The notes beneath the pieces are model-generated. The model did no database searches. It worked only from the letters and a program-made list of their open reading frames with translations, and was not told the DNA's origin. The position numbers were made by a program, and so were the translations under genes. From positions 53,145 through 117,144 of the forward strand of contig CALLOA010000044.1 in assembly GCA_938005265.1 (NCBI GenBank): 64,000 bases of DNA. Direction: 5' to 3'. Each line of letters opens with the position of its first letter. Within the stretch, counting starts at the first letter, position 1. This DNA is from an uncultured Granulosicoccaceae bacterium. Lineage in GTDB: Bacteria > Pseudomonadota > Gammaproteobacteria > Granulosicoccales > Granulosicoccaceae. Positions 13,477-46,959 of this stretch are shown here, in pieces.

Positions 13477-15348
13477 ATGGATGCTACAAATACGTCAAAC
13501 CCGGAATACTTCCACAAGGTAGTAGACTGCCAGTACGCCTGTCCCGCCCACACGCCGGTGCCTGAATATATCAGGCTGATTGCGCGGCAGCGCTACACTG
13601 AAGCCTATCTTGTTAATTGGGAGTCCAATGTATTTCCGGGGGTGCTGGGGCGCACCTGTGATCGCCCTTGTGAGCCTGCCTGCCGCAGGGGGCGGGTTGA
13701 AAGCGAACCGGTGGCAATCTGCAGGCTAAAACGTGTGGCTGCTGATAACAAGGGTGATATAGCGCCCTACATGCCTGTCATTCCCACTGAAAAGAACGGA
13801 AAATGTATAGCTCTTATCGGAGCCGGCCCGGCTTCTTTGACTGTGGCGCGCGATCTGATGCCACTGGGCTACACAATTCATCTCTACGATGAGAATCCCA
13901 AAGCTGGCGGGTTTATGCGTAGTCAGATTCCCGCCTTTCGCTTACCCGAAACCGTGCTCGATGAGGAGGTTGATCGCATCCTGGATATGGGAGTGGATTG
14001 TCAGCTGAGTCATCGGGTCGAGAGTATGAAAGGCATTTTGGCCAAGGATTATGACGCGGTATTCGTTGGCACAGGTGCACCGCGTGGCCGTGATCTTGAC
14101 TTGCCCGGTCGCCAGGAAGCGGATGAGAATGTACACATAGGGATCAATTGGCTGGCAGATGTGGCTTTTGAACACAAGCAATCCATTGGCAAAAACGTCG
14201 TGGTGCTTGGTGGTGGTAATACCGCTATGGATTGTTGTCGAACTGCTCGAAGGCTGGGTGGTGAGGAGGTAACAATTACGGTCAGAAGTACCTTTGAGGC
14301 AATGAAGGCTTCACCCTGGGAAAAAGAAGACGCACAACGTGAGGGAATTCCTTTTTTGCCCAATCACACGCCTCTGGAATTTATCTGCGAGAATGGCAAG
14401 CTAACCGGCATGACCTTCGATGAAGTCGAGTCGGTTTATGACCGTGACGGTAATAGAAAACTCGTCTCCGCAGGCAAACCGCCGGTGTTGATCAAAGCTG
14501 ATGAGGTTCTGGTGGCAATCGGGCAGGAGGTCGCGTTTCCATGGATTGAGGATGGATGCGGTATTGAATTTGATCAATGGAATCAACCGGTAGTTGATTC
14601 CACGACCTTCCAGTCAACTAATGACAAGGTGTTTTTTGGTGGTGACGCTGCTTTTGGGCCGGAAAATGTGATTACCGCTGTGGCTCACGGCCATCAGGCT
14701 GCGGTATCCATCGATCTTTTTCTGTCGGGTCGCGATATTAAAAGCGAAAGGCCAGCACCGGGTACAAGACTCTTTAGCACCAAGATGGGAATACATGAAT
14801 GGTCCTATGACAGTCAGGTAACCGTTGACGAGCGTTTTGCTGTTCCACATCTGGACAATGAAACCGCACTGGGTGACCGGCGCGCCGAAGTCGAACTGGG
14901 TTTCGATCAGAGTACAGGTTTTGCGGAAGCGCAGCGCTGTCTTAACTGTGATGTGCAAACGGTATTTATAGAATCTAAATGTATCGAGTGTGACAGTTGT
15001 GTAGATATTTGCCCGACTGATTGCATTACGTTTACGGAAAACGGTGATGAGGACGATCTGCGTAAACGGCTTACAGCACCAGCTGAGGATCTGGAGCAGG
15101 CGTTGTACGTTAGTGAGTCGTTACAGCAAACAGGCCGTATTATGGTCAAGGATGAGAACGTCTGTCTGCACTGCGGACTATGTGCTGAGCGCTGTCCTAC
15201 TGCCGCCTGGGATATGCAGCAGTATCTGTATAGCGTTACGAAACCTGCACCGGTCATTAAAATAGACGCATCGCGCATCGGCCTGCCGATAACTGGAAAT
15301 TCGGGAAAAACCGAATCGTCAAGAACAAGCGGAGGTTTGGCTAGCTAA
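13477..15348 (+). CDS. GltD/PreT-like FAD-NAD(P) oxidoreductase with two 4Fe-4S clusters
   Basis: A 623-residue flavoprotein that probably moves electrons between the 2-oxoacid oxidoreductase encoded next door and NAD(P). The N-terminus has the cysteine pattern of glutamate synthase small subunits (CQYACPAHTPV, then GRTCDRPCEPACRRG). A FAD motif GAGPAS lies near residue 112 and an NAD(P) motif LGGGNTAMDCCRTARRLGG near residue 246. Two ferredoxin motifs end the protein: CIECDSCVDICP and CLHCGLCAERCP (about residues 505-570). The stop overlaps the next start by one base (TAATG). NAD(P)-coupling is inferred from domain content and gene order. Confidence 0.85.
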   Translation: MDATNTSNPEYFHKVVDCQYACPAHTPVPEYIRLIARQRYTEAYLVNWESNVFPGVLGRTCDRPCEPACRRGRVESEPVAICRLKRVAADNKGDIAPYMPVIPTEKNGKCIALIGAGPASLTVARDLMPLGYTIHLYDENPKAGGFMRSQIPAFRLPETVLDEEVDRILDMGVDCQLSHRVESMKGILAKDYDAVFVGTGAPRGRDLDLPGRQEADENVHIGINWLADVAFEHKQSIGKNVVVLGGGNTAMDCCRTARRLGGEEVTITVRSTFEAMKASPWEKEDAQREGIPFLPNHTPLEFICENGKLTGMTFDEVESVYDRDGNRKLVSAGKPPVLIKADEVLVAIGQEVAFPWIEDGCGIEFDQWNQPVVDSTTFQSTNDKVFFGGDAAFGPENVITAVAHGHQAAVSIDLFLSGRDIKSERPAPGTRLFSTKMGIHEWSYDSQVTVDERFAVPHLDNETALGDRRAEVELGFDQSTGFAEAQRCLNCDVQTVFIESKCIECDSCVDICPTDCITFTENGDEDDLRKRLTAPAEDLEQALYVSESLQQTGRIMVKDENVCLHCGLCAERCPTAAWDMQQYLYSVTKPAPVIKIDASRIGLPITGNSGKTESSRTSGGLAS

Positions 15349-17231
15349 TGTCAGTGCAGCAAAAAAGTAGCAGCTCGAGTAAAGCCAAGCCGGTTATTAG
15401 CTCGGTTAACGAATTTGTTATCAAGTTTGCCAACGTCAACGGTTCCGGTTCGGCAAGCGCCAATACACTATTTGCGAAGTCGATTTTCCGCTCAGGCATA
15501 CCTGTGGCTCCGCGTAATATCTTTCCGTCAAACATTCAAGGTCTGCCCACCTGGTATGAAGTCAGGGTGAGTGAGCAAGGCTATCTTGCCAAACGTGGTG
15601 GCGGTGTCGACATCATGGTGTCGGTTAATCCGCAAAGCATGATGGAAGATGTGCAGGAAGTACTGCCCGGCGGCTTTTTTGTTTACGACGATACAAAACC
15701 TCTGGATATTAGAATGTTGAGGCGGGATATTCATTACATTGGCTTACCCTTGACGGATATCACCAATCGTGAGTACGAGGATGCCCGTTTGCGGCAGCTA
15801 TTCAAAAATGTCATTTATGTGGGTGCCCTGGCTGCGCTATTGGATATCAAGCTTGATGTCATCGATAAACTGATTAGTGAGCAATTCGCGAAAAAAGAAA
15901 AATTGATAAAGCCAAACTGTGAGGCGCTACGGCTTGGTTTTGATGCGGTGCGTGAATCCCACAGCTGCCCGCTTGCTATCCGGGTTGAAGCCAGGGATCT
16001 AGTGGGCGATAAAATTATGATGACTGGCAACAGTGCCTGTGGTTTAGGGGCCGTCTATGCCGGAGCAACGGTTGCTGCCTGGTACCCGATCACGCCGTCC
16101 ACATCGGTTGCCGAGGCGTTTGAAAAGTATGCGAGCCAGTTACGCTACGACAAAGAAACCGATACCAAGCGTTATGCGGTAATACAGGCTGAAGACGAGC
16201 TGGCAGCGATGGGAATGGTTATCGGTGCTAACTGGAACGGTGCGCGTTCGTTTACTGCAACCAGTGGACCTGGTGTTTCACTGATGACTGAATTTCTTGG
16301 TCTTGCTTATTTTGCCGAAGTGCCTGCTGTACTGATCGACGTACAAAGAGCCGGGCCTTCAACGGGTATGCCCACGCGCACACAACAGGGCGACATTCTC
16401 AGTAGTGTTTATGCTTCGCATGGCGATACACGGCATGTCTGTTTGTTTCCTGCAGATCCGTTTGATTGCTTCAAATTAACCGTTGATGCGTTTGATATAG
16501 CTGAACGATTGCAAACACCCGTCATCATGTTGACCGATCTTGATGTGGGGATGAACGACTGTATGTCCAATCCGCTCGAATGGGATGATAACTATCAATA
16601 TGATAGAGGTAAGGTTCTAAGCGCTAAGGAACTTGAAGAAATAGAAAAGTTCGGGCGCTACAACGATGTTGATGGTGACAACATACCTTACAGAACCTTG
16701 CCGGGCACGCATCCTGAGAAGGGTGCTTTTTTTACGCGTGGCACGTCGCGTGATGAATTTGCCATCTACACAGAAAAAGGTGAAGCCTATCAGCGCAATA
16801 TGGAACGTTTACTGGCGAAATGGTATTCGGCACCCGATTATTTGCCGGAACCCGTGATCACGCGCTCGGGCAAATCAGCCTCAGGTGCAACTGCCAGCCA
16901 TGGTTTTATTTTCTTTGGTACATCCCGGGATGCGGTCCACGAAGCGGTAGATATTCTTCAGAATAACGGTCAAGTGATTGATATGCTGCAGCTATTGGCT
17001 GTGCCGTTTCATGATTCAGTACGTGAATTTATCAACATGCACGACCACATCTATGTTATCGAGCAAAACCGTGATGCGCAGATGCGTACAGTGCTCATGA
17101 ACGAGCTCGATTGCGACCCGTTAAAGTTACGCTCGGTATTACACTATGATGGCTCTCCGCTATCAGCCTCCGTAGTTATTGAGCGTGTAAAACCGTTGAT
17201 GAACATTGAAAATATCCAGTCATCAAACTGA
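15348..17231 (+). CDS. 2-oxoacid:acceptor oxidoreductase, fused gamma-alpha subunit
   Basis: A 627-residue subunit of a pyruvate/2-oxoglutarate-type ferredoxin oxidoreductase, which decarboxylates a 2-oxoacid to an acyl-CoA. Residues about 25-215 are the gamma (CoA-side) domain, with VNGSGSASANTLFAKSIFRSG and AKRGGGVDIMV. Residues about 230 onward are the alpha domain, with TGNSACGLGAVYAG, AWYPITPSTSVAEAF and SGPGVSLMTEFLGLAYFAEVP. The ending FHDSVREFINMHDHIYVIEQN is typical of KorA. The substrate is not fixed by sequence; 2-oxoglutarate or an aromatic or branched 2-oxoacid are the options. Confidence 0.88.
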   Translation: MSVQQKSSSSSKAKPVISSVNEFVIKFANVNGSGSASANTLFAKSIFRSGIPVAPRNIFPSNIQGLPTWYEVRVSEQGYLAKRGGGVDIMVSVNPQSMMEDVQEVLPGGFFVYDDTKPLDIRMLRRDIHYIGLPLTDITNREYEDARLRQLFKNVIYVGALAALLDIKLDVIDKLISEQFAKKEKLIKPNCEALRLGFDAVRESHSCPLAIRVEARDLVGDKIMMTGNSACGLGAVYAGATVAAWYPITPSTSVAEAFEKYASQLRYDKETDTKRYAVIQAEDELAAMGMVIGANWNGARSFTATSGPGVSLMTEFLGLAYFAEVPAVLIDVQRAGPSTGMPTRTQQGDILSSVYASHGDTRHVCLFPADPFDCFKLTVDAFDIAERLQTPVIMLTDLDVGMNDCMSNPLEWDDNYQYDRGKVLSAKELEEIEKFGRYNDVDGDNIPYRTLPGTHPEKGAFFTRGTSRDEFAIYTEKGEAYQRNMERLLAKWYSAPDYLPEPVITRSGKSASGATASHGFIFFGTSRDAVHEAVDILQNNGQVIDMLQLLAVPFHDSVREFINMHDHIYVIEQNRDAQMRTVLMNELDCDPLKLRSVLHYDGSPLSASVVIERVKPLMNIENIQSSN

Positions 17232-17287
17232 TTGTCGTCATGCAAGCGTACGCCATAATTTAACGTCAACACGATTCAAATGATCTG

Positions 17288-18340
17288 ATGAGTTACTTCA
17301 AACCCCAGTTCCGACACCCACAACTGCCCACCAATGAACGTGGCTTTACCAGAACTGCTTACGAGGGTTTGATTTCTACCTTGTGTGCCGGTTGTGGTCA
17401 CGATTCTATCAGTGCTGCTATTATCCAGGCCTGTTGGGAATTAAGCCTGGAGCCACATCGTATTGCAAAAGTGTCCGGGATAGGTTGTTCATCGAAATCA
17501 CCCACGTACTTTCTTAATAAATCGCATGGCTTCAATTCGGTGCATGGTCGTATGCCTTCGGTAGCGACCGGGGCATTCGCCGGTAATCACGATCTGAACT
17601 ACATCGGTGTGTCGGGTGATGGCGATAGCGCATCAATCGGTATGGGGCAATTCGCCCATGTGGTCAGGCGAAATCTCAACATGCTATATATGGTTGAAAA
17701 TAATGGTTGTTATGGGTTGACTAAAGGCCAGGATTCGGCAACGGCGGATGAGGGGTCCAAATCCAGAACGGGTCAGGTGAATCCATTTGAGAATATTGAT
17801 CTGGTTGGTGTTGCGCTTGAAATAGGAGCGACCTTTGTTGCAAGAAGCTTCTCTGGAGACAAACAACAGTTGGTTCCGTTGATCAAGGCTGCAATTGCCC
17901 ACAAGGGTTTTGCACTTATTGATGTGATATCTCCCTGCGTTACTTTTAATAACCACCATGGTTCCACAAAAAGCTATGACTACACCCGTGAACATGTACA
18001 AAGCGGGAATATTGTAGATTTTGTTCCTTCACGCACTGAAATTACTGCGAACTATGAGGAAGGGCAAACACACAGCGTGCAATTACACGATGGCTCTATG
18101 CTGAATCTTGCGAAAACCAAGCCTGAACATGACCCTGGCAATCTTCGGGCTGCAGTCAATGCATTGCAGGCGAGTCGAGAGGAGGGCGAAATCCTCACTG
18201 GTCTGATCTACATTGATACTGAAGAGCCAGATTTTAAAACAATGATGAAGATAGGTGAGAAACCACTTAACAGCCTGTCACAGGATGAGTTGTGCCCTGG
18301 TGGTGAGCGTCTGGAAAAAATAAATGCATCGCTGCGTTAG
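17288..18340 (+). CDS. 2-oxoacid:acceptor oxidoreductase beta subunit (TPP-binding)
   Basis: A 350-residue KorB-type subunit that carries thiamine diphosphate and a 4Fe-4S cluster. The cluster cysteines are visible as CAGCGHD, GIGCSSKS and ISPCVTFNNH. The TPP site is GDGDSASIG with ENN about 30 residues later (VENNGCYGLTKGQ). The length is normal. It starts at ATG 17288, 56 bp after the gamma-alpha gene, and completes the three-gene unit. Confidence 0.9.
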   Translation: MSYFKPQFRHPQLPTNERGFTRTAYEGLISTLCAGCGHDSISAAIIQACWELSLEPHRIAKVSGIGCSSKSPTYFLNKSHGFNSVHGRMPSVATGAFAGNHDLNYIGVSGDGDSASIGMGQFAHVVRRNLNMLYMVENNGCYGLTKGQDSATADEGSKSRTGQVNPFENIDLVGVALEIGATFVARSFSGDKQQLVPLIKAAIAHKGFALIDVISPCVTFNNHHGSTKSYDYTREHVQSGNIVDFVPSRTEITANYEEGQTHSVQLHDGSMLNLAKTKPEHDPGNLRAAVNALQASREEGEILTGLIYIDTEEPDFKTMMKIGEKPLNSLSQDELCPGGERLEKINASLR

Positions 18341-38161: not shown

Positions 38162-39787
38162 TCAGGTGCCGCAAAAGGTCATGGTAACTTCTTCATGAGA
38201 TTCCGGTGGCGTCATCAAACTGCTTCGTGTTGCTTCAGGCTGGCTGTTTGTTTGGCTGCTTGTGTTGTTGCTTGTGTTGCTGGTATCAAAGGGATGAGTG
38301 CAGCCAGTCAGCAACTCTTCGAAGGCGGTGTAGCTCTTATTATTTACTGCCTCGCTAATGGCATTTTCTATTTGGTGGTTGCGAGGAATTATGGCTGGAT
38401 TACTCAGGCGCATGGTTTCCAGCCAATCCGGTGAACCGGTGTTATCTGTTGAGCCACGCGCTGAATTAGCTGAATCTGAGCTCTCAATAAGTCTGGGCAA
38501 CCATCTATCAATCCATTGGCTGGCTTCTTCACGGTTCTCGAATAGTTGTAGCCAGTTGGTAAGTGTATCGTTAGATGGAGATGGGCAGCTGACGGATGCG
38601 TTGTCGGTGGTGCCAGCCTGTAAAGAGACTGCCATTTCATAGAGTCTGAAGAAAGTCAGGGTAAAATCCGCTTTGCCGGATTCCATCAACTCAAGCAGCT
38701 CGCTGCCAAGCAGTAAGTCATCATCCTGTTCGTTTGCCAGGCCGAGTTTACGTCGCATGCCGTTAACAAATTCTTTTTGGTAGATTGGCGGGAATGAATC
38801 GACAACAGATTGTGCCTTTTCGATAGCGGCTTCTTCGCCTGATTCATCAGTCTGTATGAGTGGTAGCAAGCACTGAGCAAGTACCGCCAGATTCCATTGT
38901 GCTGCCCGTGGCTGGTTTGAGTATGCGTAACGTCCTCCGCGATCGATGGAACTGAAGGTCTTGCCCGCCTCATAATTATCCATGAAAGCGCAGGGACCAT
39001 AGTCGATAGTCTCACCGGATACATTCATATTATCAGTGTTCATTACCCCGTGAATAAATCCCACCCATTGCCATAATGCCACCAGTTTGGCCTGTTTATA
39101 CAACACGCGTTCAAGTAAAGACACGTACGGTTCAGCCTGTTCTGCACACTCCGGATAGAAACGGCCGATGACATAGTCAGCCAGTACTTTCAGACCCTCA
39201 TTATCTCTTCTGGCGGCAAAAAACTCGAACGTGCCAACCCGTACATGGCTTCTTGCTACCCGTGTCAATACAGCGCCCGGCACAAACCCTTGCTCGCGTA
39301 TGACTTGCTCACCGGTTGTTACCGCTGCCAGAGCGCGTGTAGTCGGAATACCAAGTGCCGCCATTGATTCGCCTACAATATATTCACGCATTACGGGGCC
39401 AATCCATGCTCTGCCGTCACCACCGCGTGAGAAGGGTGTACGACCTGCGCCCTTGAGCTGCAAATCGTATTTGTGGCCATCAGTGCCCTGCAACTCCCCC
39501 AGTAAAATAGCCCTACCGTCCCCCAACTGCGGTGCCCAGCCTCCAAATTGGTGGCCAGAGTAGGCCATGGCCAGTGGTTCGGCACCGTCGGGCACGTAGT
39601 TGCCGGCCAGCATCGCCACACCGGTTTCTGATTGCAACCAGTTTGCGTCCAGATCGAGCAGGCTTGCGACGGAAGCGTTCAGCTTGATTAACTCAGGGGC
39701 CTGCACCTGCGAGGGCGCCAGTTTCTCATAGAAGCGTGGTGGTAAGGTTGCATAAGTATTGTCAAACCGATGTGCTAACGCGGTCAT
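38162..39787 (-). CDS. selO: Protein adenylyltransferase SelO (YdiU)
   Basis: A 541-residue pseudokinase-fold enzyme that transfers AMP from ATP to protein hydroxyl groups. Family motifs are YSGHQFGGWAPQLGDGRAI near residue 78, LQLKGAGRTPFSRGGDGRA near residue 109, and HGVMNTDNMNVSGETIDYGPCAFMD near residue 250, which holds the metal-binding Asn and Asp. The C-terminus is TFCGT: a Cys stands at the third residue from the end, where animal SelO carries selenocysteine. The TGA after CGT is a real stop, not a Sec codon, because the following frame is not protein-like. It lies near but is not part of the sel locus. Confidence 0.9.
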   Translation of the reverse strand: MTALAHRFDNTYATLPPRFYEKLAPSQVQAPELIKLNASVASLLDLDANWLQSETGVAMLAGNYVPDGAEPLAMAYSGHQFGGWAPQLGDGRAILLGELQGTDGHKYDLQLKGAGRTPFSRGGDGRAWIGPVMREYIVGESMAALGIPTTRALAAVTTGEQVIREQGFVPGAVLTRVARSHVRVGTFEFFAARRDNEGLKVLADYVIGRFYPECAEQAEPYVSLLERVLYKQAKLVALWQWVGFIHGVMNTDNMNVSGETIDYGPCAFMDNYEAGKTFSSIDRGGRYAYSNQPRAAQWNLAVLAQCLLPLIQTDESGEEAAIEKAQSVVDSFPPIYQKEFVNGMRRKLGLANEQDDDLLLGSELLELMESGKADFTLTFFRLYEMAVSLQAGTTDNASVSCPSPSNDTLTNWLQLFENREEASQWIDRWLPRLIESSDSANSARGSTDNTGSPDWLETMRLSNPAIIPRNHQIENAISEAVNNKSYTAFEELLTGCTHPFDTSNTSNNTSSQTNSQPEATRSSLMTPPESHEEVTMTFCGT

Positions 39788-40519: not shown

Positions 40520-40617
40520 TGGCGGAAGAGCGCAGGAGTCGAACCTACCAAACTGGGTATTCGCCAATCTCAACGGGTTTGAAGCCCGCGTGGGCCACCG
40601 GGCCACAATCCTCTTCC
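40520..40617 (-). tRNA. selC: tRNA-Sec (anticodon UCA)
   Basis: Read on the minus strand, it begins GGAAGAGGATTGTGG and ends CTCTTCCGCCA, with the CCA encoded. The anticodon loop is CTTCAAA with anticodon TCA at 40580-40582, in a CGGG/CCCG stem. The T-arm is GTAGG TTCGACT CCTGC. The variable region is long and can form a GATTGG/CCAGTT helix. The whole is 98 nt, the size of bacterial tRNA-Sec and larger than a normal tRNA; the start and end match the style of E. coli selC. The eighth acceptor pair would be G-G by this alignment. selA and selB are 3 kb away, beyond an IS element. Confidence 0.95.
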
Positions 40618-40867: not shown

Positions 40868-40894
40868 TGGAGTTCCCCCGGTTTGGTAGACACC
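40868..40894. repeat. IS3 left terminal inverted repeat
   Basis: Begins TGGAGTTCCCCCGG and runs to GACACC; complementary to the right end with a few mismatches. Confidence 0.9.
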
Positions 40895-40928
40895 TCAATA
40901 TGAGTGATAATGCTCCTAGAGGTGCCTC

Positions 40929-41237
40929 ATGGCAAAACGCAAGACACGTAGAGAACGTAGATCATTTACTGACGAGTACAAGCAGCAGGTGCTTGAGTTG
41001 ATTCGTGCTGGTGACAAATCGGTATCGCAGATCTGTCGTGATCTGGATTTGACAGAATCAACGGTTCGTCGCTGGATGACACTTGATCAGGAATCAAACG
41101 GAACAATGAAGCAGAACAGTCTGTCTGAGACCGATCAGCAAGAGCTGGAACGGTTACGTGCTGAGAACAAACGCTTGAAAACAGAGCGTGAAATATTAAA
41201 AAAAGCGACGGCCTTCTTTGCCAGAGAATCGAACTGA
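40929..41237 (+). CDS. IS3-family transposase OrfA
   Basis: A 102-residue protein with an N-terminal helix-turn-helix (RRSFTDEYKQQVLELI, VSQICRDLDLTESTVRRWM) and a C-terminal leucine-zipper-like coiled coil (ELERLRAENKRLKTEREILKKA). It binds the IS ends. A run of seven A residues at 41198-41204 near its end is the likely -1 frameshift site that joins it to OrfB. Confidence 0.93.
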   Translation: MAKRKTRRERRSFTDEYKQQVLELIRAGDKSVSQICRDLDLTESTVRRWMTLDQESNGTMKQNSLSETDQQELERLRAENKRLKTEREILKKATAFFARESN

Positions 41238-41275
41238 AGTTCGAGTTTGTATCGGTAGAGAAGGCCTATTTCACG

Positions 41276-42109
41276 GTGACAGACCTTTGCAAGGTGCTGG
41301 GGATTTCGACCTCTGGCTATTACGCCTGGCTCAAACGCACACCCAGCAAGCGTCAGCTTGAAGACGACAAACTATTGGGGCTCATCAAACCCATTTTCGA
41401 AGCTAGCAGACAGACATATGGCAGCCCTCGGGTTCACGACGCGCTCAGAGATCTTGGTCATCAGGTGGCGGAAAAACGGGTTGCCAGACTTATGCAGGAA
41501 AACGGCCTTGTCGTGCTCTCCAGGCGTAGTTGGCGATGTGTCACCACTCAATCAGATCCTAGCCATGGGGTAGCGGCCAATGAGCTGGACCGCGATTTCA
41601 ATGCTACTAGCGTTAATGAGAAATGGGTGACTGATGTGACCTTCGTGCCGACTGATGAAGGCTGGTTGTATTTGGCATCAATGATCGATCTTTATAACCG
41701 TGAAGTGGTCGGTTGGGCAATGAGCGATACCAACGACACCAAGCTGACATTGAAGGCGCTCGACATGGCATTGGAATCTAGAAATCCGCCCAAAGGTCTT
41801 ATCCAGCACTCAGATCGAGGCAGTAACTACACGGCAAACGATTACCGCCAGGCGCTAACAGATCGCGGTATAAAAGTGAGCATGAGCCGCAAGGGTAATT
41901 GTTGGGATAACGCCGTTGCAGAGAGCTTCTTTGCTACTATCAAGAAGGAACTTATCCACCGGTTCAGATTTTCAACACGTAGAGAAGCTGCAGCGGCAAT
42001 ATTCGAATATATTGAAGCATTCTATAACCGTGTGCGTAAGCATTCGAAACTTGGTTACAGCAGCCCTGTAGAATTCAGAACAAATAATCAAGCTGCTAAC
42101 GCAGCATAA
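41276..42109 (+). CDS. IS3-family transposase OrfB (DDE integrase domain)
   Basis: A 277-residue catalytic part with the rve/DDE fold: the first Asp is in KWVTDVTF near residue 120, the second in LIQHSDRGSNYT near residue 181, and the Glu in DNAVAESFFATIKKEL near residue 216. GTG at 41276 opens the track ORF, but the same frame is open back through the OrfA A-run and reads into typical OrfB N-terminal sequence (FEFVSVEKAYFTVTDLCK). So the working enzyme is probably an OrfAB fusion made by -1 frameshifting. Confidence 0.93.
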   Translation: MTDLCKVLGISTSGYYAWLKRTPSKRQLEDDKLLGLIKPIFEASRQTYGSPRVHDALRDLGHQVAEKRVARLMQENGLVVLSRRSWRCVTTQSDPSHGVAANELDRDFNATSVNEKWVTDVTFVPTDEGWLYLASMIDLYNREVVGWAMSDTNDTKLTLKALDMALESRNPPKGLIQHSDRGSNYTANDYRQALTDRGIKVSMSRKGNCWDNAVAESFFATIKKELIHRFRFSTRREAAAAIFEYIEAFYNRVRKHSKLGYSSPVEFRTNNQAANAA

Positions 42110-42113
42110 CGTC

Positions 42114-42140
42114 GGTGTCCACTAAAGCGGGGGAACTCCA
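42114..42140. repeat. IS3 right terminal inverted repeat
   Basis: Ends in GGGGGAACTCCA; the inverse of the left end. Confidence 0.9.
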
Positions 42141-42302
42141 AAACAGGGCCAGGTGTTTATCCCGTTAGTTTGTCAAAGTCATCAATAATTCAGCTTTACA
42201 GCTATTACGACTGCTATTTTATCGTAAGGTTTCCTGTAACAGAGAGTGTTAAAAAAGCTAAAATACCGATGTACGCCAACTAACTAGGTAACAGGTGAAT
42301 CC

Positions 42303-43499
42303 ATGGTGAGAATTGCAGATCTGCATCCTGCAGGGCGTAAAGGGGCGGAAGCGCTTGAATGCCCCAGCTTTCCCGGCTTGCAGCCCGCACAACCGGTGGC
42401 ACGCGAGAATCGCAAGCTTGCACTGGTGTCCAGCGCAGGTTTGATACGGCGTGGCGACGCACCATTTCGAGGCGGTGACGCCGGTTACAGGGTGTTGGAT
42501 AAATCGGTGGCCAATGAGGATGTTCTGCTCAGTCACGTATCGGTTAATTTTGATCGCAGCGCAGCAGTTAGAAATATTGAATCGATCATGCCGCGTACTA
42601 CGGCACAACAGTTGGTTAAGCAGGGTCTGATAGGTGCTGTAGCAGAGGAACATTATTCGTTTATGGGGGCGACTGACCCTAAAATGATGGAAGAAGAGGC
42701 GGGTGACGCCGCTGATCGGATGTTGGCGGAAGGCGTCAACTTGGCTATTTTATTACCCGTTTGACCCAACTGTACGCGCGCCGTGAGCGTGCTCGCAGTT
42801 TATCTGGAAAAAAAGGGTATTTCGACAATTGTTATCGGCTCGATACGCCTTCATCTGGAAAAAGTAAAACCACCGCGGGCTCTTTGGGTTCCGTTTGAAT
42901 TAGGCAGGCCGCTGGGAGGCTGGATTACAGGTGAGGACAGCAATAAAGTAGATGGCGCAGATGGTGGCTTCCAGTTAAAGGTCATGAGTGCAGCGTTATC
43001 ATTGCTGGAAAAACCGGCAAACGAGCCTGTTCTTGTTGATTTCGAACTTGAGGATCCTTCATGCAATATCGATAAGACTTGGCAGGCACCCGCAATGTCA
43101 GCGTGCAAAACAGTGACTGATGAGGTGCGCTACCTCTATGGTGACTGGCAGGAATGGCAACATAAAAATGGCACGAAAACCGGACTTTCGGGCATGGAAA
43201 TATCGGCAGCGGTTGATTTCGTGGAGCGCTTCGGTTCGGCAGACCCCGCAAGTAATCCCAATGGAGAAATGTCTGATACGTTGCGTTTTCGCTTTTGCGT
43301 TGATGATATAAAAACCTTCTACCTGGAAGCTGCCATGAACCGTGGTCTACCGGATAGTCAGCAACTTGGCCAATGGCTCTGGAACGAGTGTCAATTTGGG
43401 GCATTGCTGCGACAACGACGAATAGAGAATAGAGAACATGAGAACGATCGCCTTAAACTGGTGTATGAAAAGTTCTTGGTACCGGGTGCCTGGCAATAG
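42303..43499 (+). CDS. GrdB/PrdB-like selenoprotein (in-frame UGA = selenocysteine)
   Basis: The track shows two ORFs (42303-42764 and 42783-43499) in the same frame, split by TGA at 42762-42764. Reading it as Sec gives one 398-residue protein with Sec154 in LLPV-U-PNCTRAVS, a U-x-x-C redox motif. The part before the UGA is like the selenoprotein B subunits of glycine/betaine/sarcosine/D-proline reductases (ALVSSAGLIRRGDAPF, EEHYSFMG), and the part after continues the same fold (LAVYLEKKGISTIVIGS, then ALWVPFELGRPLG). A SECIS-like hairpin starts 3 nt after UGA. tRNA-Sec, selA and selB are neighbours. ATG 42303 has AGGTG upstream. The exact reaction is unknown; no other reductase subunit is encoded nearby. 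Confidence 0.92.
42765..42800 (+). promoter_or_regulatory. Candidate bacterial SECIS element
   Basis: Within the coding mRNA directly after UGA: AACTG (42768-42772) pairs with CAGTT (42796-42800); after a TA/CTCG internal loop, CGCGC (42775-42779) pairs with GCGTG (42787-42791), closing a 7-nt loop GCCGTGA that contains GU. Position and size match elements that bind SelB. Folded by eye only. Confidence 0.75.
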
Positions 43500-43582: not shown

Positions 43583-45031
43583 GTGTCTAGAGTTAATTTG
43601 CATCCAAGCCATATACCGTCGCTGGACAAATTGCTGGGTCAAGCGCCTGCGGGTTTTTTGATTGAACGACTGGGTCGGGACTTTAGTGTGACACTTTATC
43701 GTGATGCGATAAGCGCTTGTCGCGCCGACATGTTGTCTGAAAGCTGTGACTCGAAACAGGTGGTCGCACCACAGGAATTTGAAAGTGCTGACGACGCGGC
43801 AACACATGTTGCGGCTATCATTCATAAACACGCAACGCAAGCCTGCGACTCCATGCTTGCTAGCTCATTAAAGCCGGTATTCAATCTGACCGGTACAGTC
43901 CTGCATACCAATCTTGGGCGTGCGCCTTTGCCGCAGGCCTGTATAGATTCGATGGTTAAGGTATCACGTGGTGCCAGCACGCTGGAATTTGACATAGAAG
44001 CAGGCCGGCGCGGTGATCGAGATTCTCATGTCGAAGAATGGCTTTGCCGTTTAACGGGTGCGGAGGCCGCTACGGTTGTTAACAACAATGCTGCAGCGGT
44101 TTTGTTAACACTGAATACGGTGGCTTCGCAGAAATCAGTCGCTGTGTCACGCGGCGAGCTGGTAGAAATTGGTGGCAGTTTCAGAGTGCCGGCGATCATG
44201 AAAAAGGCCGGTTGTCATCTGGCCGAGGTGGGTACCACCAACCGTACACACGAGCATGACTATCTGTCAGCCATCGAGGAAGGTGCGATTGCGGTAATGA
44301 AAGTACACACCAGCAATTATCGCATTGAAGGTTTTACCAAAAGTGTTTCCGATGCCGAATTGGCGTCACTTGCACATGAGCGAGATTGTGTCTTTATCAA
44401 TGATCTGGGAAGTGGCGCTCTGGTCGATCTGTCTCGTTTCGGTTTACCGGCTGAGCCAACAGTGCGGGATGCGATACAAGAGGGTGCGGACATCGTTACT
44501 TTTAGCGGGGATAAGCTGCTGGGTGGTCCGCAATGTGGGTTGATCGTTGGAAAAGCTGAACAGATCGCTGCCATTAGAGCCAATCCTATGAAGCGCGCCT
44601 TACGCTGCGATAAAATGACACTCGCCGCTTTGGAAACTCTTCTTAAGTTGTATGCTAATCCTGAGCAATTGGCACAGCAAATACCCTCACTACGCCTGTT
44701 ATCACGAAAACCGCAACACATGCAGGAGACAGCTGATTCCTTGCATCAACACTTGATTAAATTTTTTAACAGCAACATCACGGTAGCGACAACTGATTGT
44801 CAAAGTCAGGTAGGCAGCGGTGCACTGCCGGTTGAGTCCTTGCCGAGTCTTTGTCTGGTGTTATCACCTGCCGGTTCGCTGTCCGTTTCGAATATGGCTG
44901 CCCGCTTGAGAGAACTATCTGTGCCGGTGATTGGTCGCATTAACAAGAACTCGTTAATTCTTGATCTGCGCTGCCTGGAACATGATGACACAGCAGCATT
45001 TATTGCCAATCTTGAATCGGGTGGGAGCTGA
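43583..45031 (+). CDS. selA: L-seryl-tRNA(Sec) selenium transferase
   Basis: A 482-residue PLP enzyme that converts Ser-tRNA(Sec) to Sec-tRNA(Sec) with selenophosphate. Visible are the N-terminal tRNA-binding region (LHPSHIPSLDKLLG), FNLTGTVLHTNLGRAPLPQ near residue 104, VVNNNAAAVLLTLN, and the PLP-lysine site TFSGDKLLGGPQCGLIVG near residue 312. The length is slightly above the E. coli protein. The start is GTG 43583, 83 bp after the selenoprotein gene; selB starts 2 bp after the stop. Confidence 0.95.
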   Translation: MSRVNLHPSHIPSLDKLLGQAPAGFLIERLGRDFSVTLYRDAISACRADMLSESCDSKQVVAPQEFESADDAATHVAAIIHKHATQACDSMLASSLKPVFNLTGTVLHTNLGRAPLPQACIDSMVKVSRGASTLEFDIEAGRRGDRDSHVEEWLCRLTGAEAATVVNNNAAAVLLTLNTVASQKSVAVSRGELVEIGGSFRVPAIMKKAGCHLAEVGTTNRTHEHDYLSAIEEGAIAVMKVHTSNYRIEGFTKSVSDAELASLAHERDCVFINDLGSGALVDLSRFGLPAEPTVRDAIQEGADIVTFSGDKLLGGPQCGLIVGKAEQIAAIRANPMKRALRCDKMTLAALETLLKLYANPEQLAQQIPSLRLLSRKPQHMQETADSLHQHLIKFFNSNITVATTDCQSQVGSGALPVESLPSLCLVLSPAGSLSVSNMAARLRELSVPVIGRINKNSLILDLRCLEHDDTAAFIANLESGGS

Positions 45032-45033
45032 CC

Positions 45034-46959
45034 ATGTTGTTGGCCACGGCTGGTCATGTTGATCATGGCAAGACTACTCTGATAAAGGCGCTGACCGGTG
45101 TTGAAACTGACCGGCTGAAAGAAGAAAAGGCCAGGGGTTTATCGATAGACCTGGGGTTTGCCTATATTGACGCACCTGATGGTCAGTCTATCGGGTTTAT
45201 AGATGTCCCTGGCCATGAAAAGTTTATTCGCAATATGGCGGCGGGGATTGGTGCTATTGATCTGGCTTTGCTTATTGTTGCCGCTGATGATGGTGTTATG
45301 CCACAGACCCGCGAGCACGCAACCATATTGGGCTTGTATGGTATCAATCAATGTATGGTTATCATCACGCGGACTGATCTTGTTGATGATATTCAGGCTG
45401 ATGCAGCAGCGGAAGCAGCCGAAGTACTCGTAAAACAACACGGCATCAACGCTCTGGCTACACATCGGGTTTCCAGCGTTACGGGCTCTGGAATAGATGC
45501 TTTGAAAAAGGATCTGTTTGAATACACGGCGGGCTCGACCAAAGCCAGGTCTGAGGCGCAGGCAGATGTCTGTTTCAGGCTAGCAGTTGACCGATCATTT
45601 ACAGTTCCCGGAGCCGGGACCATAACAACGGGCACAGTCTACAGCGGTCATGCCGGTTTGACTGATGCTCTTCAACATTTACCCAGCCAGCAATCGTTAC
45701 GGTTGAAAGCACTGCACATCAATGGCAGAAAGTCTGATGAGTCCGCTATTGTGCGGCGTGGTCACCGCGTGTCTTTCAATGTTGCAAATCTTGGTGCTTC
45801 GGAAATACTTCGTGGTGACTGGATTACCAGCAATGAACAGTCCGTCTTGACTGAGTGCATTGATATAGAACTCAGTTTACTGCCTGATGAGATCACGCGC
45901 TTGAAGCACTGGAGCAGTGTGCATGTACATTTTGCAGCAAGCAGTCTTACGGCTCGTGTATCGCTTTATGAGCACCGTCATCTGGAACCCGGGCAAACTG
46001 CAATGGCACAGTTGGTTTTGTCCAGGCCGGTTCATACAGTTTTTGGTGATCGGCTTGTACTTCGAGACTCGGCTGCATCCCGAACGATTGGTGGTGGTTT
46101 GGTTGTTGAACCGTATTCTCAGCGGCAAAGAAGCTATCGCAGAAATCGTGTAGATACACTTTTGGCGCAAAATAGTAGCGACCCGGTAACTGCCATGAGA
46201 AGGTTGCTTGAGATTTCCAGCAAGGGAGTCAAGGCTGCGGATTTCCGGCAAGGGCGAAACCTGAAGGCCACAATATTCAGCCAGATATTGGGAACGCTGG
46301 ATGTTGTCAGTACGGCCACAGAGCTACGTGATTCATCCGTCGAGGATGAGCTGCTATTTGCAAAGCATGAGCTGGAACTGGTCTGTGAATCGCTGCGCGT
46401 ATCCATATCGGACTATCATCGTCAGCATCCCGAAGAAGCCGGTATGCCGCAAAACGAATTACTTGGTGCGAAGTCGAATGTTGTCAGCAGTACAAGTGTC
46501 GCGCTGGGAATGATGCTGCAGCGCCGTGAGTTGGCACGTAGCGGCAACCGTATAAAGCTTGTGGACTTTGTGCCCAAGCTGGACACTCACTCGGCTGCGC
46601 TGTTGGACAAGATCTATGTGGATATTGGGCCACAGGTTACAAAGCCCCCATCGTTGTCGGCACTGGAAGAAAGTACCGGCCTTAAGCTCAAGGAACTAAA
46701 TGAACAGGTGAAGCCGCTGGTTAAAGCCGGATATCTTGTTCCTGTTTCCAGAAACCGTGTCTATCATCCGCAAGCCTTGCAGTCGTTGGTTTCTCTCGCG
46801 CAGACGTTACACGAAGAACAAAGTGAGACTGGGTTTGATGCTAAAACGTTTCGAGACCGTGCCGGCATTGGTAGAAATATCACAATAGAAGTTCTTGAAT
46901 ACCTTGATGCCGCTGGTTATACGCGCAGAATTGGTGATCGGCGGTTTTATAATCCGTGA
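45034..46959 (+). CDS. selB: Selenocysteine-specific elongation factor
   Basis: A 641-residue GTPase that brings Sec-tRNA(Sec) to a UGA marked by a SECIS hairpin. GTPase motifs are GHVDHGKTTLIKAL (residues 7-20), DVPGHEKF near residue 57 and TRTDLV near residue 109 in the G4 position, where TKAD or NKAD is usual. Beta-barrel domains follow (VPGAGTITTGTV near residue 190), and the C-terminal 270 residues are winged helices that bind the SECIS RNA. ATG 45034 is 2 bp after selA. It converges with the metal transporter operon. Confidence 0.95.
   Translation: MLLATAGHVDHGKTTLIKALTGVETDRLKEEKARGLSIDLGFAYIDAPDGQSIGFIDVPGHEKFIRNMAAGIGAIDLALLIVAADDGVMPQTREHATILGLYGINQCMVIITRTDLVDDIQADAAAEAAEVLVKQHGINALATHRVSSVTGSGIDALKKDLFEYTAGSTKARSEAQADVCFRLAVDRSFTVPGAGTITTGTVYSGHAGLTDALQHLPSQQSLRLKALHINGRKSDESAIVRRGHRVSFNVANLGASEILRGDWITSNEQSVLTECIDIELSLLPDEITRLKHWSSVHVHFAASSLTARVSLYEHRHLEPGQTAMAQLVLSRPVHTVFGDRLVLRDSAASRTIGGGLVVEPYSQRQRSYRRNRVDTLLAQNSSDPVTAMRRLLEISSKGVKAADFRQGRNLKATIFSQILGTLDVVSTATELRDSSVEDELLFAKHELELVCESLRVSISDYHRQHPEEAGMPQNELLGAKSNVVSSTSVALGMMLQRRELARSGNRIKLVDFVPKLDTHSAALLDKIYVDIGPQVTKPPSLSALEESTGLKLKELNEQVKPLVKAGYLVPVSRNRVYHPQALQSLVSLAQTLHEEQSETGFDAKTFRDRAGIGRNITIEVLEYLDAAGYTRRIGDRRFYNP

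What the first reader, a model, noticed from the sequence alone, without database searches (positions are those of the whole stretch)
42303..43499. Selenoprotein split by the ORF track: GrdB/PrdB-like protein with Sec at UGA 42762
Seen: two adjacent ORFs in the same frame, parted by one TGA, join into a continuous fold with U-P-N-C at the junction. The spacer codons are coding-like, and the second half has no ribosome site of its own before its GTG. Known: glycine, betaine, sarcosine and D-proline reductases use a Sec-containing B subunit, mostly in strict anaerobes. Inference: this organism makes a stand-alone relative, with no GrdA, GrdC/D or PrdA partner gene in the window, so its reaction may be new.
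Basis: partly seen in the sequence, partly recalled or inferred. Interest (0 to 1): 0.9.

Follow-up and report, generated by a model that had tools for sequence, protein, structure and literature searches.

The report
Selenoprotein gene beside selenocysteine machinery
A marine bacterium carries a gene split by a UGA that is read not as a stop but as selenocysteine; it is a lone, enlarged cousin of the clostridial proline and glycine reductases and sits directly beside the genes that make selenocysteine, but its substrate is unknown.

Summary
The two ORFs at 42303-43499 are one 398-codon gene with Sec at UGA 42762-42764 (U154-P-N-C). All 80 relatives fetched from public genomes have TGA there. 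Of 35 further alphaproteobacterial matches, 32 have TGA and 3 have Cys. Clostridial-type PrdB aligns its own Sec (U151) to the same column. A hairpin 14-30 nt after the start of the UGA shows near-fixed synonymous codons and covariation, as expected of a SECIS.

It is not a PrdB or GrdB. It scores 79 bits against PrdB's cutoff of 300, carries a C-terminal extension of about 160 residues, forms its own well-supported clade, and the genome has no pyruvoyl partner (GrdE/PrdA) or GrdA. Marine Sec 'PrdB' genes have been counted since 2005, so the kind is known. What is new is the separation from true PrdB, the SECIS evidence, the Sec-cassette linkage, and a weak lead: a haloacid dehalogenase next door in 5 loci.

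Most likely it is a thiol-dependent Sec/Cys reductase without a pyruvoyl cofactor; the substrate remains open.

The parts
42303..43499 (+). Sec-containing PrdB/GrdB-superfamily gene, 398 codons, read through one UGA
42762..42764 (+). UGA codon for selenocysteine 154 (motif U-P-N-C, UxxC)
   Evidence: TGA in 80/80 relatives; aligns with Sec151 of PrdB and Cys of Cys homologues
42776..42792 (+). SECIS-like hairpin, 6-bp stem, apical loop CGUGA at 42782-42786
   Evidence: fold; near-fixed synonymous codons 158-161 only here; 94% of cells paired, covariation score reached by 0 of 500 shuffles
42293..42298 (+). AGGTGA ribosome-binding site of the whole gene
   Evidence: sequence
43583..45031 (+). 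selA, L-seryl-tRNA(Sec) selenium transferase, 83 bp downstream, same strand
   Evidence: TIGR00474 E=1.5e-171, over cut-off
45034..46959 (+). selB, Sec-specific elongation factor
   Evidence: TIGR00475 E=1.2e-103, over cut-off
40524..40617 (-). selC, tRNA-Sec (anticodon TCA)
   Evidence: ARAGORN; Rfam RF01852 63.3 bits
40868..42140 (+). IS3-like insertion element (two transposase ORFs 40929-41237 and 41276-42109) lying between tRNA-Sec and the selenoprotein gene; not part of the system
   Evidence: 27-bp inverted repeats at its ends, 89%; absent at the same place in a congener, L039

Best explanation
UGA 42762 is decoded as selenocysteine by the SelA, SelB and tRNA-Sec encoded on either side, guided by a hairpin just downstream (strongly shown by comparison, not by experiment). 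The product is a stand-alone member of the PrdB/GrdB superfamily: a PrdB-like core of about 240 residues with the U-x-x-C active-site motif, plus a C-terminal extension of about 160 residues not found in PrdB (shown). It most likely works as a thiol-driven reductase. The Sec154 selenolate attacks an electrophilic carbon or heteroatom of a small substrate, Cys157 resolves the adduct as a selenenylsulfide, and a cellular dithiol or glutathione regenerates it (inferred from the motif and from the PrdB, GrdB and FarB precedents). It does so without a pyruvoyl Schiff-base partner, so an amino-acid substrate of the PrdB/GrdB sort is unlikely (inferred). The gene travels with, or is maintained together with, the Sec machinery in this family of bacteria (linkage shown, cause inferred).
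For: Sec: 80/80 relatives with TGA; 32 TGA and 3 Cys in an independent alphaproteobacterial draw; Sec column shared with PrdB of Peptoclostridium and Ligilactobacillus and with Cys homologues. SECIS: codons 158-161 have a top-codon share of 0.84-0.96 against at most 0.70 at the other 56 of 60 conserved columns; stem pairs 94% formed, covariation score and doubly changed cells reached by 0/500 shuffles, one pair GC/UA/AU. Machinery: selA, selB, tRNA-Sec, selD elsewhere in the genome. Linkage: selA, selB or selD in the flank of 42 of 110 loci, immediately next in 35; selA present in exactly the 16 of 57 kin genomes that have the gene. Own clade: 49 rows, support 99/98, apart from PrdB and the short Cys relatives. 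No PF09338 or PF04723 in this genome or three relatives, while the controls ring. Mechanistic precedents: PMC10298544, FarB in PMC10838667.
Against: No expression, 75Se or mass-spectrometry data. No substrate evidence. The genome assembly is about 91% complete, so partner absence is not absolute. The co-occurrence is within one bacterial family, so its 16 genomes are not independent events. No solved structure resembles the confident model, so active-site geometry could not be checked.
Confidence: 0.65

Rival explanations
1. It is a true D-proline (or glycine-type) reductase B subunit, as the marine metagenome surveys named it, and its pyruvoyl partner is simply unlinked or missing from the assembly.
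For: TIGR04483 PrdB is the best family hit, E=3.7e-22; UxxC shared; Sec column aligns; surveys filed such genes as PrdB.
Against: 78.9 bits against a cut-off of 300; extra C-terminal extension and separate clade; no PF09338 or GrdA in this genome or three relatives, although the same searches find them in Peptoclostridium; no such partner noticed among recurrent neighbours of 110 loci.
Confidence: 0.1
2. It is a Sec-dependent dehalogenating or C-X cleaving enzyme, working with a hydrolytic haloacid dehalogenase or glutathione transferase in some hosts.
For: 5 of the 6 HAD type-II haloacid dehalogenases among 1065 neighbour ORFs lie within 50 bp on the same strand, in three or four lineages and both orders (TIGR01428 over cut-off in L106 and L108); glutathione transferase-like gene 41 bp upstream in L054 and an apparent one in three more loci (by sequence reading only); FarB, a GrdB relative, is the proposed fluoroacetate reductase.
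Against: Found after looking (post hoc); L064 and L074 are close kin; none in 35 further alphaproteobacterial loci; no such gene next to the window copy; HAD enzymes have many substrates.
Confidence: 0.15
3. It is a general thiol-disulfide or peroxide-type redox protein (UxxC used as in thioredoxin-like selenoproteins), serving selenium or redox homeostasis, which would explain linkage to selA/selB/selD.
For: UxxC/CxxC motif conserved in Sec and Cys forms; selA/B/D are the only widely recurrent neighbours.
Against: Not a thioredoxin fold by family search or Foldseek; the superfamily's known members cleave C-N or (proposed) C-F bonds; linkage to sel genes is also seen for ordinary selenoenzymes such as FdhA (PMC5029168).
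Confidence: 0.2
4. The TGA is a nonsense mutation or sequencing error in an ordinary Cys gene.
For: None beyond the split ORF.
Against: TGA at the same codon in 80/80 relatives and in the paralogue of the same genome; SECIS signature.
Confidence: 0.01

Closest known systems
D-proline reductase PrdB (TIGR04483)
   Same: About 240-residue core, Sec in UxxC at the aligned position (U151), shared H78, D84, R192 and other residues
   Different: Window protein has about 160 extra C-terminal residues, 25-26% identity, score 79 against cut-off 300, no PrdA/PrdC/PrdD neighbours, U-P-N-C instead of U-G-T-C
Glycine/sarcosine/betaine reductase GrdB, GrdF, GrdH (PF07355)
   Same: Weak match over residues 17-150 to the C-terminal part of the GRDB model; Sec in UxxC
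   Different: Lacks the long N-terminal part of GrdB and the third Cys of GrdB's UxxCxxC (A160 here); no GrdE or GrdA
Marine 'PrdB' selenoproteins of the Sargasso Sea and GOS surveys
   Same: UxxC selenoproteins related to PrdB, abundant in surface ocean (42 and 235 genes); probably the same family
   Different: Named proline reductase only by similarity; the sequences were not compared here one by one
FarB, proposed fluoroacetate reductase of Cloacibacillus (PMC10838667)
   Same: Sec GrdB-superfamily protein recruited to a new electrophile
   Different: FarB has a FarE (GrdE-like) partner in its operon; window gene has none
Pseudomonad selAB-fdhA Sec cassettes (PMC5029168)
   Same: One selenoprotein gene tied to the Sec-decoding genes
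   Different: Here the linked selenoprotein is PrdB-like, not formate dehydrogenase

Membership tests
Selenoprotein (bacterial, UGA-decoded) | In-frame UGA at a position held by Sec or Cys in homologues | tested here: met
   80/80 TGA; Cys in three full-length and several short homologues; Sec in PrdB
Selenoprotein (bacterial, UGA-decoded) | SECIS hairpin just downstream, small apical loop with G | tested here: met
   loop criterion from PMC1088965. No Rfam SECIS family matched
Selenoprotein (bacterial, UGA-decoded) | Host has selA, selB, selC, selD | tested here: met
Selenoprotein (bacterial, UGA-decoded) | Sec present in the protein | not testable with these tools
   needs 75Se labelling or mass spectrometry
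D-proline reductase PrdB | Equivalog score over 300 bits to TIGR04483 | tested here: not met
   78.9 bits
D-proline reductase PrdB | Pyruvoyl-bearing PrdA (PF09338) in the genome | tested here: not met
   none in G000, G002, G013, G023; controls ring
D-proline reductase PrdB | Groups with PrdB in a tree | tested here: not met
   separate clades, 100/100 and 99/98
D-proline reductase PrdB | Sec in UxxC of the core domain | tested here: met
D-proline reductase PrdB | Reduces D-proline to 5-aminovalerate | not testable with these tools
   needs a biochemical assay
Glycine/sarcosine/betaine reductase protein B | GrdE partner and GrdA in the genome | tested here: not met
Glycine/sarcosine/betaine reductase protein B | UxxCxxC motif | tested here: not met
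   U154-P-N-C157-T-R-A160; A160 invariant in 41 sequences; motif from PMC13188914
GRDB superfamily (PF07355) | Score over Pfam gathering threshold | tested here: met
   22.2 against 22 for the whole protein, 25.9 for the first half; all 8 members of A1 match at E<=0.01

The most novel reading that the evidence does not exclude
A pyruvoyl-free, Sec-dependent reductive C-X (for example C-halogen) cleaving enzyme, spread through marine and soil Proteobacteria and some Chloroflexota and Thermodesulfobacteriota, which is a main reason why its hosts keep the selenocysteine code.
Probability: 0.12. Interest if true: 0.8.

Novelty: new variant of a known kind. Interest (0 to 1): 0.5.

Why it matters
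Genes of this sort are among the most abundant selenoproteins counted in the surface ocean, yet they carry the name of a clostridial enzyme whose cofactor partner their genomes lack. Separating them from true PrdB shows that an abundant ocean selenoprotein has no known reaction. Because the gene sits in the Sec cassette and co-occurs with selA without exception in this family, finding its substrate would help answer why these bacteria keep selenocysteine. The question becomes directly testable with one purified protein and its U154C/U154S forms.

Tried and rejected
Nonsense mutation or assembly error: rejected by 80/80 TGA and the SECIS signature. True PrdB or GrdB: rejected as membership. Sole selenoprotein of the genome: rejected, since a second PrdB-like Sec gene and a SelW-like Sec gene exist; all listed formate dehydrogenase matches in this genome lack an in-frame TGA. 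Rfam SECIS models: no match, taken as lack of a model. Solved structures: none by sequence and no Foldseek match at E<=0.001 despite a model with pLDDT 92 and pTM 0.91. A constant operon partner other than sel genes: none; several classes recur only 3-5 times. The HAD link did not extend to 35 more alphaproteobacterial loci. One pair-count call failed for a bad symbol. One genome search failed for a wrong handle.

Full report
What is there. Reading TGA as selenocysteine, window 42303-43499 (+) is one open frame of 398 residues with U154 in V-U-P-N-C. An AGGTGA site lies four bases before the ATG, none lies before the internal GTG, and both halves look coding in that frame only.

Is the UGA selenocysteine? 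The genome of the window (4.9 Mb, 91% complete; its nearest named relatives are marine Granulosicoccaceae, Gammaproteobacteria) and its kin hold many relatives, each with one in-frame TGA at the same place. A scan of public genomes with the Sec position masked by X, hence neutral between Sec and Cys, returned 441 loci. The best 80 were fetched and all 80 have TGA at that codon. A separate even draw of 385 alphaproteobacterial genomes gave 35 full-length matches: 32 with a TGA and 3 with none; the motif of those three is C-P-N-C. Annotated PrdB genes from Peptoclostridium acidaminophilum and Ligilactobacillus salivarius have their own in-frame TGA (U151), and it falls in the same alignment column. 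Short alphaproteobacterial homologues have Cys there.

SECIS. Nine to 21 bases after the end of the UGA, codons 158-161 (Thr-Arg-Ala-Val) use one synonymous codon in 84-96% of 82 sequences, while no other of 60 conserved columns exceeds 70%. The constraint is on RNA, not protein. The stem at 42776-42781 / 42787-42792 closes a five-base loop CGUGA. In 35 distinct sequences 94% of cells pair, the covariation score and the doubly changed cells are reached by none of 500 shuffles, and one pair occurs as GC, UA and AU. A small apical loop with a G is the published mark of bacterial SECIS elements (PMC1088965). Two of the Cys forms were folded: their codons there differ and the folds are weaker.

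Surroundings. Directly downstream on the same strand are selA (43583-45031) and selB (45034-46959). Upstream on the other strand is tRNA-Sec (40524-40617). Between tRNA-Sec and the gene sits an IS3-like element, 40868-42140, with 27-bp inverted repeats. In a congener (L039) the tRNA-Sec is only about 150 bp from the gene, so the element was inserted into a compact Sec cassette. selD is elsewhere in the genome. Across 110 loci, selA, selB or selD lies in the flank of 42 and immediately next in 35; no other gene family recurs so widely. Of 57 kin genomes, selA occurs in exactly the 16 that have the selAB-linked gene. These 16 are related, so this is strong association rather than 16 independent events. 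The genome also holds a second, diverged Sec copy and a SelW-like Sec gene, so this is not its only selenoprotein.

What family. Pfam GRDB matches at threshold and NCBIfam PrdB matches at E=3.7e-22 but with 79 bits against a cut-off of 300. The alignment shows a PrdB-like core followed by about 160 residues that PrdB (237-242 residues) lacks. In a tree of 59 proteins the 400-residue family forms one clade (99/98), apart from PrdB (100/100) and from the short Cys homologues (100/100); the full-length Cys forms nest inside the Sec clade, which points to Sec-to-Cys replacement there (the joining of the two long outer branches is not to be trusted). Neither the pyruvoyl partner family (PF09338) nor GrdA (PF04723) is found in this genome or three relatives, while the same searches find them in Peptoclostridium. 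It is a member of the PrdB/GrdB superfamily but not a PrdB or a GrdB. A confident structure prediction (pLDDT 92, pTM 0.91) has no significant match among solved structures, and no PDB chain is found by sequence.

How it most likely works. Shown: a conserved U/C-x-x-C pair in the core, with H78, D84, E169 and R192 invariant even to PrdB. Known from the superfamily: in PrdB and GrdB the selenolate is thought to attack a substrate held by a pyruvoyl Schiff base, giving a Se-C bond that a thiolate breaks to a selenenylsulfide (PMC10298544); in FarB the target is proposed to be a C-F bond (PMC10838667). Inferred: without a pyruvoyl partner, the window protein must bind its electrophile directly, perhaps with help of the C-terminal extension, and is recycled by cellular thiols. 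A lead to the substrate is that five of six haloacid dehalogenases (TIGR01428) among 1065 neighbour ORFs are within 50 bp on the same strand, in soil Alphaproteobacteria, Hyphomicrobiales, Desulfobulbaceae and Desulfobacteraceae (nominal P 7e-8, post hoc and not fully independent). This did not extend to 35 more loci, so it is a lead and no more.

Known or new. Sec-containing 'PrdB' genes with UxxC were reported from the Sargasso Sea (42 genes, PMC1088965) and the Global Ocean Sampling (235 Sec and 110 Cys, PMC2398784). They are probably this family, though the sequences were not compared here. The papers found count them as proline reductase; none found describes the lineage as distinct, its C-terminal extension, or its linkage to selAB (only open-access text was searched). 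Hence 'new variant of a known kind': the gene is no surprise to a selenoprotein specialist, but the naming in use is not supported and the reaction is open.

Noticed in passing
window 40868-42140: IS3-like element with 27-bp inverted repeats, one copy in the assembly, inserted between tRNA-Sec and the selenoprotein gene; absent at this place in the congener L039.
   Followed up: yes
G000:C203:10541-11716 (L028, L003): Second Sec PrdB-like gene (U-P-F-C) in the same genome, about 32% identical, beside a GMC-type oxidoreductase and close to a proline/betaine-type ABC transporter; not linked to sel genes.
   Followed up: partly
G000:C126:5134-5346: SelW-like (Rdx) gene with an in-frame TGA: a further likely selenoprotein of this genome. 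Two relatives (G001, G019) have the TGA form but no selA was found in their assemblies.
   Followed up: partly
window 38162-39787: A SelO-like protein adenylyltransferase gene lies 2.5 kb from the Sec cluster, also near it in L039; in a Roseomonas plasmid (L118) SelO is the direct neighbour of a Cys-type short relative.
   Followed up: partly
G000:C32:119215-120162 (L035): SelD lies in an open frame of 789 residues, so it is probably fused to another domain, as in the SelD-like neighbours of about 730 residues in other loci.
   Followed up: no
L064, L074, L094, L106, L108: Type II haloacid dehalogenase genes within 50 bp and on the same strand as the Sec gene, upstream or downstream.
   Followed up: partly
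L109, L110, L111, L115, L163: Long upstream frames of about 357 residues in high-GC alphaproteobacterial contigs, overlapping the Sec gene by 3 bases in some; composition looks like spurious antisense frames, not checked.
   Followed up: no
L181 (G480:C4:226389-227573): Relative with one TGA and one further TAG inside the frame: a decayed copy, an assembly error, or something odder.
   Followed up: no
window 13477-18340: Cluster of a glutamate-synthase-like/dihydropyrimidine-dehydrogenase-like oxidoreductase with 2-oxoacid:ferredoxin oxidoreductase-like genes.
   Followed up: no
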